Assembly: GCF_032854445.1 (NCBI RefSeq)
Contig: NC_088295.1
Span: forward strand, 13,813,385 to 13,877,384
DNA: 64,000 nt
Origin: Liolophura sinensis
Taxonomy: Eukaryota; Mollusca; Polyplacophora; Chitonida; Chitonidae
Reading direction: 5' to 3'
The notes beneath the pieces are model-generated. The model had not been told where the DNA came from, searched no databases, and was given only the letters and a program-made list of their open reading frames with translations. This document shows positions 53,092 through 59,000 of this stretch, piece by piece. Numbering within the stretch: the stretch's first letter is position 1; every line of letters begins with the position of its first letter. Made by a program: the position numbers and the translations under genes.

Positions 53092-56000
53092 ACTGAAGCA
53101 AATATTGGGGAAAAAAACAAAATAAACTGGTAAGGCTCGGGTTTACATTTAATTTCAAAGATTTCCCTGCTGTAACAATGATTTACTGCATGACTGACCC
53201 AAATTTTATTGGAAATATACAATCTACAGTATTTAGTAATGTATTTGTCTGACACATATTTCATGGCAAACTCTAGAAAAGATTTACTTTCATCATGACA
53301 TTGATGTTTAAGTATAAAAGAAACACTTGGAAATCAGGACTGCTCTTTGATATGACATACAGACACAGACAGATCTACATAAATGGCTACACTCATAAGA
53401 TAAGGCACAAGTTTACACTGTACTCATGAACCAATTATTAATGTTATTAACACACGGTTGCAAGAATGCTGCTTGAAAATCACATAATTAATTTTTTTGA
53501 GGCTGAACATATTGAGAATCCTGCACCCCAAAGCATCACAGTTGTCGCATTTGCGATCTTTCAGATTGATGAAAAAGGCAACACTTCAAAATGTTGGTGC
53601 TGCAATATAGAAAACCTAAAAGTTCACCTGGATGAGATCAAAGAAGAGCCCGAGCAGATCCTCCAAAGCTGTGAACTCTTTACGAAAGATGTGGGGCTGT
53701 AACAACTCCAGTAGACCCAGGACATGGGTGAAAAACAGGAGATAGTTACGATGCCGCATCTCTCCAAAGGTGAATTGAGTTCTACCCTTCAGCAGGGCTG
53801 CCAACATGGGCAGCTGCCTGCAATAGATGGTAAATAAGACATTTATATTGCGTGCTCTATGTCAGGTAATATGTATAAAACTGAAATAGCCAGTGTTTCC
53901 AATGGAAAGATGAATGCATGTGGCATACACTGCAACTTCATTCCAAAATAATTACAGTAACAAGTGTTTGTACATGTATTTTACATGACAGAAACATCAA
54001 AAATCTGACTACCAAGCTGCTTTTTCATAACATTTTAATCAGATTTATTTATTTATTTGACAATTATTTAATGCCACATTAAAACAATTTCACTTTTACA
54101 ATGGCAGTCAGCCTTATGTATGTAGGATAATAGAGTACCTGAGACAAACACCCAACCTTTGGCAAGTTACCAACAAACTTTCCCACATGTGACCTATAGA
54201 TATGCAAACCATATCGCTGGAAGATAAGTGGGCAAACTGCCATACAGGCGTTGTCACCAACACACACCTCCTACAGCTTTAGGTGTCTTACACAGATGGC
54301 TAACATACCTGGGATACCTGGAAACAGACGTGTTTCCTACAGGTTTAGGTCTTACAGATGGCTAACTTACATGGAAATCAGGTGAAGGTGATGGGCTGCC
54401 AGTTTTCTGCAGGTTTAGGTCTCACAGACGGCTAACATACCCGAGAAACAGACGTGGGTGTTGGGCGGCGAGTTTCCTACAGGTTTAGGTCTCACAGATG
54501 GCTAACCTACATGGAAATCAGGCGAGGGTGATGGGACGCCAGTCTTCTGCAGGTTTAGGTCTCACAGACAGCTAATATACCCGAGAATCAGACGTGGGTG
54601 TTGGGCGGCGAGTTTCCTACAGGTTTAGGTCTCACAGATGGCTAACCTACATGGAAATCAGGCGATTGTGATGGGCCGCCAGTTTTCTGCAGGTTTAGGT
54701 CTCACAGACGGCTAACATACCCGAGAACCAGACGTGGGTGTTGGGCGGCAAGTTTCCTACAGGTTTAGGTCTCACAGATGGCTAACCTACATGGAAATCA
54801 GGCGAGGGTGATGGGCCGCCAGTTTTCTGCAGGTTTAGGTCTCACAGACAGCTAACATACCCAAGAATCAGGTGAGGGTCTTGAGCTGCCAGTTTCCTAC
54901 AGGTTTAGGTCTCACGGATGGCTAACCTACATGGAAATCAGGTGAAGGTGATGGGCCGCCAGTTTTCTGCAGGTTTAGGTGTCTTACACAGATGGCTAAC
55001 CTACCTGAGAATCAGACGAGGGTGTGGGGCCACTAGTTTCCTACAGGTTTAGGTGTCTTTATACACAGATGGTTTTTAATAACATACCTGAGAATCAGAA
55101 GAGGATGTTGGACCACCAATTTCCTACAGGTATATGTGTCTTACACAGATGGCTAACCTACCTGAGAATCAAAAGAGGGTGCTGAGCTGAGAGTTTCCTG
55201 CAGGCAATGTTAGCATCTCTCATGCGATTCTCAGCCTGCTTCCCAGCCACAGCCTGACCCAGGGTTGTGATCAGCCGGTGAGAGATCATGTCCAGCTACA
55301 ACCCAATAACAGCAAAAACCAGTGTTATTGTCTTATCAATGCTGTACAGGGGTTTACACTGTGGAATGTAAACAATCTCTCAGCATGCCAAAAAGAGCTA
55401 GAATTGATCAATTCCCACACAACTAAAGCCAGCTAACTGAGTGCTCAGGGAGCACCAAATGGCTTTATTTACATTCCAAATGAGAAACCGCAAAGCCGTG
55501 GATCTGTTTATTAATCTTCACTATTTGCATGTCTATTCATATCAAAATATATTTGTTTACTTCTTTAGATGTCACTACAACACTAATTATATTTAAACGC
55601 TATTCGAATCCAACCAAGATTAATGTACTGTTGTAACTGAGCACTATCTACAAATTGAAAGCTACACACTTTGCCCAGTTCCACTGTATTCTGTTAGAAA
55701 TGGGAGCAAAACACATAGAACTTGTTATTATCGTTATTACCACAAACACAATGATTAATCCAAACCTATCTATAGGTACCTTTCAGAACAACAAATGGAA
55801 ACAGCTTTGAATGTACACATCACTAAGAACATGTTAAACTTGACTGACGTGTGGGAGAGTGCGAGATCAACATATCAGCTGCATACATGTATTTTCTTTA
55901 CACTGCTGACAAAGACCCATTTCACAAAATCTTTTTTCTTTCACACATCTGGCAACCAATAGTGCAGGGAGTACAATGCTGCACAGGATATAAGAAGCAA

Positions 56001-59000
56001 GCCCTTGGTCAGCATGAGCAGGCTAAGGTTACCTGGCTGTGTCCTCTCTGTGTGGACTGGGTGTCCATGATGTACGGGCAGTTTTCCTCCAGCCATGAGC
56101 CGATGTACGGGTATTGTAAGTAGAGCTCTACCAACAGCTGACCATACAACTGGCTTAGGTCGCTGAAATATACAATATTAAAGTGATGTGAAATAATCAC
56201 AACAGGTGAAATAATCACAACCAGTGCAAGTGAACTTTATACAATATGTTCATGATCAACATAACTAATGTGAGTCACCAGGAATGGCAGTGCACAACAT
56301 TCAAGATAACTACATGTAGTTCACACTGGTCAGTATATGTAATACCAGTGTCATTTGTCTATTGCCGAACATCAGTTTAATATAATACTCTACTGGGCCA
56401 TGACTCTATTTCATTCACGTGATGGCTAAAATTGTTTACAGGAGATCAGATATTGGTGGTAGAAAGAGTACACCTGATAAAACATATTAATGTCAAGCAA
56501 CAGTCAAGACAGCGTAATCTGACTTACCTGTCCTCTTTGAGCTTCCACTGGACATGGTTCACAACCACCTTCAGCTTGTTCTCTCTGCCACACAGACAGC
56601 ACTTGATCAATTCTGTGCGACTATTCATCACATCTGACACTTCCACAGGTACATGTACCTTGACATGTGACCCAGCCGAGGACGCTGACTGGTTCATGTT
56701 GCCCTCTGCCACTATAGTGTCAGCCAAACAGATGAGCTGAGAGTCCGTCAAACCCAGAACATCTTCTGGAGTATAGTTCTGACAACATGTGAAATGGTGA
56801 TTCATGTAACTTTAACACAGAGTAAATGCAGTGCTACAACATTATCTTATGTATTTTACAAATAACTAAAGACTGTCTTGCAACCATTTTGTAATTTTAC
56901 TTAAACTGAGGTGTGTTTTTCTGTGACACTAAAGGAAATGTCAGTTAAGTGACACAGGTCATGGCACAGGAAACTGACAACATCTGACAAATTGCAAACC
57001 ACTGCTCCTACATACACCTATCAAACACTGAAGCACATGGACCTCATTGGTCATGCTTCTGCAGAAAAGAACTCATCTGCTGACAAAACCTCAAACACCT
57101 ATCAAACACTGGAGCACATGGACCTCATTGGTCATGCTTCTGCAGAAAAGAACTCATCTGCCGACAAAACCTCAAACACCTATCAAACACTGGGGCACAT
57201 GGACCTCATTGGTCATGCTTCTGCAGAAAAGAACTCATCTGCCGACAAAACCTCATACACCTATCAAACACTGGGGCACATGGACCTCATTGGTCATGCT
57301 TCTGCAGAAAAGAACTCATCTGCCGACAAAACCTCATACACCTATCAAACACTGGAGCACATGGACCTCATTGGTCATGCTTCTGCAGAAAAGAACTCAT
57401 CTGCTGACAAAACCTCATACACCTATCAAACACTGGGGCACATGGACCTCATTGGTCATGCTTCTGCAGAAAAGAACTCATCTGCCGACAAAACCTCATA
57501 CACCTATCAAACACTGGAGCACATGGACCTCATTGTTCATGCTTCTGCGGAAAAGAACTCATCTGCTGACAAAACCTCATACACCTATCAAACACTGGAG
57601 CACATGGACCTCATTGGTCATGCTTCTGCAGAAAAGAACTCATCTGCCGACAAAACCTCATACACCTATCAAACACTGGGGCACATGGACCTCATTGGTC
57701 ATGCTTCTGCAGAAAAGAACTCATCTGCCGACAAAACCTCATACACCTATCAAACACTGGAGCACATGGACCTCATTGTTCATGCTTCTGCGGAAAAGAA
57801 CTCATCTGCTGACAAAACCTCATACACCTATCAAACACTGGAGCACATGGACCTCATTGTTCATGCTTCTGTGGAAAAAAACTCATCTGCTGACAAAACC
57901 TCATACACCTATCAAACACTGGGGCACATGGACCTCATTGTTCATGCTTCTGCGGAAAAAAACTCATCTGCTGACAAAACCTCATACACCTATCAAACAC
58001 TGGGGCACATGGACCTCATTGGTCATGCTTCTGCAGAAAAGAACTCATCTGCCGACAAAACCTCATACACCTATCAAACACTGGGGCACATGGACCTCAT
58101 TGGTCATGCTTCTGCAGAAAAGAACTCATCTGCCAACAAAACCTCATACGCCTATCAAACACTGGAGCACATGGACCTCATTGGTCATGCTTCTGCGGAA
58201 AAGAACTCATCTGCCAACAAAACCTCATACACCTATCAAACACTGGAGCACATGGACCTCATTGGTCATGCTTCTGCGGAAAAGAACTCATCTGCCAACA
58301 AAACCTCATACGCCTATCAAACACTGGAGCACATGGACCTCATTGGTCATGCTTCTGCGGAAAAGAACTCATCTGCCAACAAAACCTCATACGCCTATCA
58401 AACACTGGAGCACATGGACCTCATTGGTCATGCTTCTGCGGAAAAGAACTCATCTGCCGACAAAACCTCTCTAAGTGCTGAACATGATGGAGAGTTTGCA
58501 GGCAGCTAGAAGAAAATTGTACAAATGACATATTTTATAGCTGGATGTTTTGTTTTATTTATTTGATTCGTGTTTTCTGCCGAACTCAAAAGTATTTCAG
58601 TAATACTATGGCGGCCAGCATTATGATGGGAGGAAATCGGGCAGAGTCCAGGGGAAACCCACGACCATCCGCAAGTTGCTTCCACGTACAGACGCAGAGG
58701 AAGCCAGCATATGCTGGACTTGAACTCACAACGGCCACATTGGAGAGAGGCTCCTGGGTCATTGCGCTGCCTTACCCCCTCGGCCTGAATGTTTTGATGT
58801 TGACAGTCCTAGAAATTACAAATGTCACACTAGTAAGAAGCAACTTTCTTTCACCTACCTTAGGTAATTTCCGGTCTCTGCCTTGCCATATCTTGGGAAT
58901 GTTGTAGCAGGCCCACAGGAAGTCTAGCACACAGGTCGGGTCATACCTACAAGGAGGGACAGCTATATCTGAGACACAATGTGGAAAAAAGCACATGTAC

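What the first reader, a model, noticed from the sequence alone, without database searches (positions are those of the whole stretch)
54272..55295. INTS1 intron array made of tandem ghost copies of the upstream exon's last 36 bases and its splice donor
Each 70-bp monomer consists of about 36 bases resembling the 3' end of exon 55162-55295 plus 34 bases of intron. In the units read, the 36-base part kept its length and carried no stop: exon KLSAQHPLLIL, type A KLAAQHPRLIL, type B KLASHHPRLIS. Each unit starts after an AG (CTGTAG or CTGCAG, with a branch-point-like CCTAAAC) and ends at a GT (GTATGT or GTAGGT). Any one used as a cassette exon would add 12 residues in frame to a core Integrator subunit. 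The 34-base spacer is too short to be an intron, so adjacent units could not both be spliced. I know of no described minisatellite of this junction-derived design in INTS1.
Basis: partly seen in the sequence, partly recalled or inferred. Interest (0 to 1): 0.86.

Follow-up and report, generated by a model that had tools for sequence, protein, structure and literature searches.

The report
Minisatellite copied from an exon-intron junction
An intron of the INTS1 gene holds about twelve decaying tandem copies of the end of the neighbouring exon plus its splice donor; they look like ordinary slippage products without convincing acceptor sites, although this genome holds other arrays of the same kind, one of which looks more spliceable.

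Summary
On the minus strand, just after the INTS1 exon 55295-55162, the intron holds 11 full tandem units and one rearranged unit (54271-55123). Each full unit copies the exon's last 36 bases (22-28 of 36 identical) plus 34-47 bases of intron start. All 11 keep the 36-base length, carry no in-frame stop, and lie between CTG(C/T)AG and a GTA donor.

The cassette-exon reading is not supported. The exon-like half changes faster than the intron half (33 versus 13 inferred changes, P=0.004), without significant codon-position bias; zero stops is expected by chance 29-37% of the time. Ghost acceptors score like random intronic AGs. Donors are strong by descent.

Best explanation: a minisatellite seeded by tandem duplication across a splice junction, partly homogenised as a 140-bp A/B dimer, and removed with the intron. 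Minisatellites cover 18% of a 200-kb sample of this genome. Of 12 sampled arrays that I read, 3 are junction-derived, two of them in a TMF1-like gene. One has nine 57-base in-frame exon-like units, strong donors, modest acceptors and 69-base spacers. The class is more interesting than the INTS1 case. No RNA or related species could be examined.

The parts
55162..55295 (-). INTS1 exon whose 3' end seeded the array (134 nt, ends ..CTCAG, followed by a phase-2 intron)
   Evidence: spliced frame open; Integrator subunit 1, E 3e-89
55162..55197 (-). Unit 0: last 36 bases of the exon, starting after an exon-internal CTGCAG
55124..55161 (-). Unit 0 spacer: first 38 bases of the intron, donor CAG|GTAGGT
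55041..55123 (-). Ghost unit 1 (36 + 47), donor CAG|GTATGT
54967..55040 (-). Ghost unit 2 (36 + 38), donor CAG|GTAGGT as at the real junction
54897..54966 (-). Ghost unit 3 (type B, 70)
54827..54896 (-). Ghost unit 4 (type A, 70)
54757..54826 (-). Ghost unit 5 (type B, 70)
54687..54756 (-). Ghost unit 6 (type A, 70)
54617..54686 (-). Ghost unit 7 (type B, 70)
54547..54616 (-). Ghost unit 8 (type A, 70), donor weakened to GTATAT
54477..54546 (-). Ghost unit 9 (type B, 70)
54407..54476 (-). Ghost unit 10 (type A, 70)
54337..54406 (-). Ghost unit 11 (type B, 70), donor CAT|GTAAGT
54271..54336 (-). Unit 12: rearranged distal unit (66 nt), exon-like part shortened; keeps the long spacer form
53818..55161 (-). 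The whole intron, 1344 nt, real acceptor at 53818 before the exon 53817-53628

Best explanation
It is an intronic minisatellite that arose when a segment spanning an exon-intron junction (the last 36 exon bases plus the first 38 intron bases) was duplicated in tandem. A likely route is slippage or unequal exchange between CTGCAGGA inside the exon and CTGTAGGA in the intron. The array then expanded and was partly homogenised as a 140-bp A/B dimer. The AG-to-GT framing of every unit is a by-product: the exon-internal CTGCAG forms the unit start and the real donor was copied with it. The ghosts are not selected as exons. The real donor at 55161 is spliced to the real acceptor at 53818 and the array leaves with the intron. 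Shown here: descent from the junction, dimer structure, no sign of coding constraint in the ghosts, background-level acceptor scores. Inferred: the duplication route, homogenisation, normal splicing and absence of function.
For: Descent: all 11 ghosts beat all 300 shuffles each. Borders read CCTGCAGGAAACT in the exon, CTAAAGCTGTAGGAGG at the distal end, and CTAAACCTGTAGGAAACT (units 1/2) or CTAAACCTGCAGAAAACT (units 2/3) inside, as expected if intron sequence was joined to exon sequence at the shared CTG(C/T)AGGA. The 38-base spacer form sits towards the ends (units 0, 2, 12) and the 34-base form in the middle (units 3-11), as homogenisation by unequal exchange predicts. No coding constraint: exon-like part 33 parsimony steps in 36 columns against 13 in 34 spacer columns, P=0.004; without CpG columns 20 in 27 against 9 in 30, P=0.016; codon-position steps 7/10/13, P=0.41. 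No in-frame stop has probability 0.29-0.37 under neutral simulation, and a second frame is open in all 11 too. Acceptors: -6.4 to -3.8, 32nd-50th percentile of 353 background AGs, below all 8 real acceptors (-1.0 to 6.7). Branch-point-like As lie 7-9 nt from the end of the AG. Genome background: 59 arrays cover 36,911 of 200,000 sampled bases. RNA fold z=0.53.
Against: The spacer half is better conserved than the ghost half; a mutational or conversion bias is assumed, not shown. For all 11 ghosts the proportion of synonymous differences from the exon (0.42-0.63) exceeds that of non-synonymous ones (0.09-0.30), for example 5 to 2 for unit 8. I ascribe this to selection on the real exon, but unit 4 against units 6, 8 and 10 also shows 6 synonymous to 2-3 non-synonymous, which that does not explain. 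Nine of the 11 full ghosts have donors at the 99th percentile or above of intronic GTs. No RNA data were available. The matching borders could also be the cut end of a further repeat copy rather than the original microhomology.
Confidence: 0.84

Rival explanations
1. Cassette microexons: individual ghosts are spliced in at times and add 12 residues to INTS1, at most every second unit because the 34-base spacer is too short to be an intron.
For: 36-nt length kept and no stop in 11 of 11 full ghosts; phase-2 intron so insertion stays in frame; donors at the 92nd-100th percentile of intronic GTs; synonymous-weighted differences among some ghosts (unit 4 against 6, 8, 10).
Against: Acceptors are at background level and below all 8 real ones; the exon-like half is the less conserved one; no significant codon-position bias; open frame expected by chance at 0.29-0.37; branch-point-like A very close to the AG (the minimum distance is recalled).
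Confidence: 0.04
2. Donor decoys: the row of about a dozen donor-like sites binds U1 snRNP after the true donor and tunes INTS1 splicing, intron retention or premature 3'-end formation. Use of any ghost donor without a ghost acceptor reads through the true donor into an immediate stop (AGG TAG), so it would lower INTS1 output.
For: Donors of units 1, 2 and 12 score like the true one (5.9, 6.3, 5.9 against 6.3); the ORF list shows the exon frame ending right after the true donor; the intron-derived half is the better conserved half.
Against: Donor hexamers are not better conserved than the rest of the spacer (4 of 13 steps in 6 of 34 columns) and unit 8 has decayed to GTATAT. Donor-like sites occur at 0.65 or more per copy in 16 of 59 arrays of a 200-kb sample, so such rows are common here.
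Confidence: 0.1
3. Chance resemblance: the monomer is unrelated to the exon.
For: Identity of single ghosts to the exon is only 61-78%.
Against: All 11 exceed 300 shuffles each; similarity continues through the donor into the intron; blastn of 8 window arrays against 9 INTS1 exons gives E below 0.01 only for this array and this exon.
Confidence: 0.01

Closest known systems
Tandem repeats at exon-intron boundaries in human segmental duplications (De Grassi and Ciccarelli 2009, PMC2812944; outline and passages seen)
   Same: Minisatellite-like repeats lie across exon-intron boundaries and can bring splice signals with them.
   Different: Those have RNA support for novel introns and average 30-bp units repeated 4 times; here the unit is 70 bp, the copies lie inside an existing intron, and no transcript was available.
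Intron gain by tandem genomic duplication of AGGT-bearing segments (reviewed in PMC3443670; Drosophila cases in PMC2891723; passages seen)
   Same: A tandem copy carries an AG|GT site and so creates candidate donor and acceptor pairs.
   Different: There a coding segment is duplicated and becomes an intron; here the junction of an existing intron is duplicated and the 34-47 base GT..AG stretches are too short to be animal introns (recalled limit).
Human alternatively spliced introns from tandem arrays (Zhuo et al. 2007; seen only as a reference in PMC2812944; paper not held)
   Same: Splice sites repeated in tandem by array growth (recalled).
   Different: Not read; no comparison tested.
Intronic minisatellite CeRep25B linked to alternative splicing in C. 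elegans (PMC4039745; passages seen)
   Same: Intronic minisatellite with possible splicing effect.
   Different: That repeat is palindromic and occurs in clusters on chromosomes III and II; this one is a single locus derived from its own exon.
Tandem (mutually exclusive) exon arrays (PMC6071210; search listing and start of abstract only)
   Same: In-frame exon-like units in tandem, with spacers too short for neighbours to be spliced together (recalled principle).
   Different: Background-level acceptors and no sign of coding constraint in the INTS1 units. The TMF1-like array in L003 fits this kind better on splice sites.

Membership tests
Minisatellite | Head-to-tail units of roughly 10-100 bp | tested here: met
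   70-bp units, 10.3 copies by TRF; dimer period 140
Minisatellite | Copy number varies between individuals | not testable with these tools
   One assembly, one locus found in it
Junction-derived tandem repeat | Unit contains both the exon end and the intron start of the adjacent gene in register | tested here: met
Tandem cassette or mutually exclusive exon array | Each unit has an acceptor in the range of real ones | tested here: not met
   11 of 11 full ghosts below all 8 real acceptors, 32nd-50th percentile of 353 background AGs
Tandem cassette or mutually exclusive exon array | Each unit has a usable donor | tested here: met
   92nd-100th percentile of 460 background GTs; weakest is unit 8, score about 0, below all 8 real donors (3.0-8.9)
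Tandem cassette or mutually exclusive exon array | Coding constraint on the units | tested here: not met
   Exon-like part changes more than spacer, no significant codon-position bias; some deep ghost pairs are synonymous-weighted
Tandem cassette or mutually exclusive exon array | Inclusion seen in RNA | not testable with these tools
   No transcripts available
Intron gain by tandem genomic duplication | Duplicated segment carries an AG|GT proto-splice site | tested here: met
   Exon unit and ghosts 1-2 end CAG|GT; the later types A and B end GG|GT and AT|GT
Intron gain by tandem genomic duplication | A new intron is spliced | not testable with these tools
   No RNA; GT..AG stretches are 34-47 nt, the shortest of 8 INTS1 introns mapped is 365 nt
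Decoy exon | Strong donor and strong acceptor around a rarely used exon (definition recalled) | tested here: not met
   Donors strong, acceptors at background

The most novel reading that the evidence does not exclude
In this genome minisatellites repeatedly seed themselves on splice junctions and act as a nursery of exons. Junction copies arise in tandem, most decay like the INTS1 array, and some become spliceable arrays of in-frame exons. An example is the 126-bp array of 57-nt units in the TMF1-like gene, which could give coiled coils of variable length.
Probability: 0.22. Interest if true: 0.68.

Novelty: new member of a known kind. Interest (0 to 1): 0.38.

Why it matters
By itself the INTS1 array is a clear example of how a minisatellite can be born across a splice junction, with exon, first copies and homogenised centre all still readable. 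It warns that in-frame, stop-free, AG-to-GT repeats need not be exons. If the class is common, this animal would be a good system to watch tandem junction copies turn into, or fail to turn into, new exons.

Tried and rejected
RNA structure of the array: folds no better than shuffles, z 0.53, 14 of 20 shuffles as good or better. A gene on the other strand: of ORFs of 40 codons or more over the array, the longest on the plus strand has 53. A dispersed satellite: the only genome matches are the locus itself and its own exon-side copy, with the tool's caveat that common words are skipped. Other window arrays as exon-derived: none of the other 7 tested matches any of 9 INTS1 exons at E below 0.01; the best is 0.025 (a first blastn was set too strictly and found nothing, not even this array). 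Pfam on the three forward frames of L003 found nothing, and on those of L006 gave RRM_1 (E 7e-5) plus two weak matches, not followed up. The TMF1 label rests on one PF12325 match about 3.2 kb past the end of L003 on the same strand and on recall of the TMF1 protein; the sample pieces themselves carry no annotation. Nine sampled arrays that I read do not look like junction copies: three in L004, one each in L009, L011 and L019, two in L018, and L003:2474-2601. This was by eye. Six of the 16 donor-rich arrays were not read (L001:5603, L003:1403, L007:6403, L009:6144, L010:1631, L013:5322). Related species: no eukaryotic collection is offered, so presence elsewhere was not tested. Papers: nine searches ran. 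Two gave no paper holding all terms: INTS1, minisatellite and intron; minisatellite, exon-intron, donor splice site and tandem repeat unit. Passages of PMC12783039 (earthworm metallothionein, minisatellites in the first intron, fourth-exon duplications not seen in transcripts) and PMC3045353 (sea bream myostatin-2) were seen and not found to describe junction copies in those passages.

Limits: splice matrices are recalled human-like frequencies; only eight real introns served as a yardstick. Substitution counts are parsimony steps on one tree built from the same units, without support values; conversion between units breaks the tree assumption, so P-values are nominal and one-sided. Unit 12 was left out of all unit counts, and columns with gaps were left out of the spacer count (34 columns kept). 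The prevalence sample is 20 pieces from the first 14 Mb of one 96-Mb contig, and arrays cut by piece ends are included.

Full report
What is there. The window carries INTS1 on the minus strand. Nine exons were joined in one open frame, and the protein matches the solved Integrator complex subunit 1 chain 7cun_A (human, by recall) at E 3e-89 over query residues 52-498. The exon 55295-55162 ends ..CATTGCCTGCAGGAAACTCTCAGCTCAGCACCCTCTTTTGATTCTCAG and is followed by a phase-2 intron of 1344 nt (55161-53818). The chain reads ACRKLAVAHPLLLLRHLPM where this protein reads ACRKLSAQHPLLILRQLPM across the junction, so the junction is well placed.

The array. Cutting at CTG(C/T)AG gives the exon's own 36-base end, 11 complete ghosts and a rearranged twelfth. 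Ghost-to-exon identity is 26, 27, 23, 27, 24, 26, 22, 28, 22, 27 and 24 of 36; all 11 score above every one of 300 shuffles. Spacers are 47 and 38 bases in units 1 and 2 and 34 in units 3-11. Types alternate: B in units 3, 5, 7, 9, 11 (ending CAT, then GTAGGT or GTAAGT) and A in 4, 6, 8, 10 (ending in GG, then GTATGT or GTATAT), and the 140-bp period fits better than the 70-bp one. The tree of whole units groups B and A as two clades apart from units 0, 1 and 2; in the tree of the 36-base part alone, unit 4 falls outside the A group. Only this locus was found in the assembly.

How it probably arose. The exon border reads CCTGCAGGAAACT, the far end of the array CTAAAGCTGTAGGAGG, and interior borders CTAAACCTGTAGGAAACT or CTAAACCTGCAGAAAACT; the first border (units 0/1) has changed to CATATACCTGTAGGAAATT. 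Interior borders thus look like the intron's CTAAA joined to the exon's CCTG(C/T)AG. The two border words share 7 of 8 bases (CTGCAGGA, CTGTAGGA); at one fixed register chance gives 7 or more of 8 with probability 0.0004, but a truncated further copy would look the same, so this step is inferred. The exon-internal CTGCAG explains why every unit begins after an AG, and the copied donor explains why it ends at a GT. The long spacer form towards the ends (units 0, 2, 12) and the short form in the middle fit homogenisation of the centre.

Is it maintained as exons? Four tests say no. First, the exon-like half changed more than the spacer half: 33 steps in 36 columns against 13 in 34, P=0.004; without CpG columns 20 in 27 against 9 in 30, P=0.016. 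Second, codon positions 1/2/3 carry 7/10/13 steps, P=0.41. Third, the absence of stops has probability 0.37 or 0.29 under neutral simulation on two trees (mean 2.6 and 2.8 ghosts with a stop), and another frame is equally free of stops in all 11 ghosts. Fourth, ghost acceptors score -6.4 to -3.8, at the 32nd to 50th percentile of 353 background AGs, while the eight real acceptors score -1.0 to 6.7; the As of the CCTAAAC motif are 7-9 bases from the end of the AG. Against this stands a weighting of exon-versus-ghost differences to synonymous sites in all 11 ghosts (proportions 0.42-0.63 against 0.09-0.30; unit 8: 5 to 2; but units 7 and 9: 5 to 7), and the same weighting between unit 4 and units 6, 8 and 10 (6 to 2 or 3), while younger pairs show none (for example units 5 and 7: 0 to 2). 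I read it as selection on the real exon, perhaps with repeated copying from it, but it is not fully explained.

Donors. Ghost donors score -0.0 to 6.3, at the 92nd to 100th percentile of 460 GTs in the same introns, 9 of 11 at the 99th or above; units 1, 2 and 12 are about as strong as the true donor. They are not better conserved than the rest of the spacer (4 of 13 steps in 6 of 34 columns). Reading past the true donor meets a stop at once. A decoy role is possible but unsupported.

Context in the genome. In 20 pieces of 10 kb from the first 14 Mb of the same contig, 59 arrays of period 25-250 and 3 or more copies cover 36,911 of 200,000 bases, and 16 of 59 carry 0.65 or more donor-like sites per copy on a strand. 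I read the sequence of 12 of these 59 arrays by eye, 10 of the 16 donor-rich ones and 2 neighbours; 3 of the 12 look junction-derived. In L003 there are two, in a gene with one PF12325 match about 3.2 kb past the end of the piece on the same strand (E 9e-12; TMF1 by recall). One repeats the end of an exon (..ATCACAGAGAGGCTAG then GTAAGG): six donors, the exon's own and five copies, 80-89 bases apart. The other has an upstream exon copy, nine 57-nt units IEAIQQSLSQEISELKREK (with variants) and a 33-nt last copy, separated by ten 69-nt spacers; donors score 7.9-8.7 and the 10 spacer-borne acceptors -2.6 to 0.0, 9 of 10 within the range of the real INTS1 acceptors and at the 57th to 76th percentile of the INTS1 background. 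Its exon-like part varies at 5 of 57 columns and its spacers at 8 of 69, so coding constraint is not shown there either. L006 carries four identical acceptors TTTCTACAG followed by GTGGAGTTA, three in the array and a last one before a 58-nt stretch, open in two of three frames, that looks like an exon; each scores 10.1. With such array density, arrays on splice junctions are to be expected; whether they exceed chance was not tested.

Literature. Repeats across exon-intron boundaries with splicing effects are described in human segmental duplications (PMC2812944: outline and passages). Tandem duplication as a source of introns is reviewed in PMC3443670 and reported for Drosophila in PMC2891723 (passages). 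The INTS1 array is therefore a new member of a known kind. The searches found no paper with their combined terms; most subscription journals are not in that library.

Verdict. Observation confirmed; descent from the junction supported; cassette-exon function not supported by sequence. The wider class, especially the TMF1-like array, deserves the RNA check first.

Noticed in passing
L003:3988-5280 (G000:C1:1903988-1905280): TMF1-like gene: tandem array of 126-bp repeats, nine 57-nt in-frame units (IEAIQQSLSQEISELKREK and variants) after an upstream exon copy, ten 69-nt spacers, strong donors (7.9-8.7) and modest acceptors (-2.6 to 0.0); looks more spliceable than the INTS1 array.
   Followed up: partly
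L003:2760-3270: Second junction-derived array in the same gene: six donors GTAAGG or GTGAGG, the exon's own and five copies of the exon end.
   Followed up: partly
L006:830-1281: Acceptor-side junction array: four identical strong acceptors TTTCTACAG followed by GTGGAGTTA, the last before a 58-nt stretch that looks like an exon.
   Followed up: partly
57011-58469: 81-bp array, 18 copies, 97% matches, inside another INTS1 intron (58858-56779); 81 is 27 codons and open frames of 505 and 475 codons run over it on the plus strand.
   Followed up: no
G000:C1, 20 sampled pieces L001-L020: Minisatellites are very dense: 59 arrays cover 36,911 of 200,000 bases.
   Followed up: partly
58800-58560 and 52640-52580, L004:4040-5150: SINE-like sequence (GTGGGTTTCCCC.. 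TTTCCTCCCACCATAA and relatives) in two INTS1 introns and repeated in a long degenerate array in L004; seen by eye, and the link to known lophotrochozoan SINEs is recalled.
   Followed up: no
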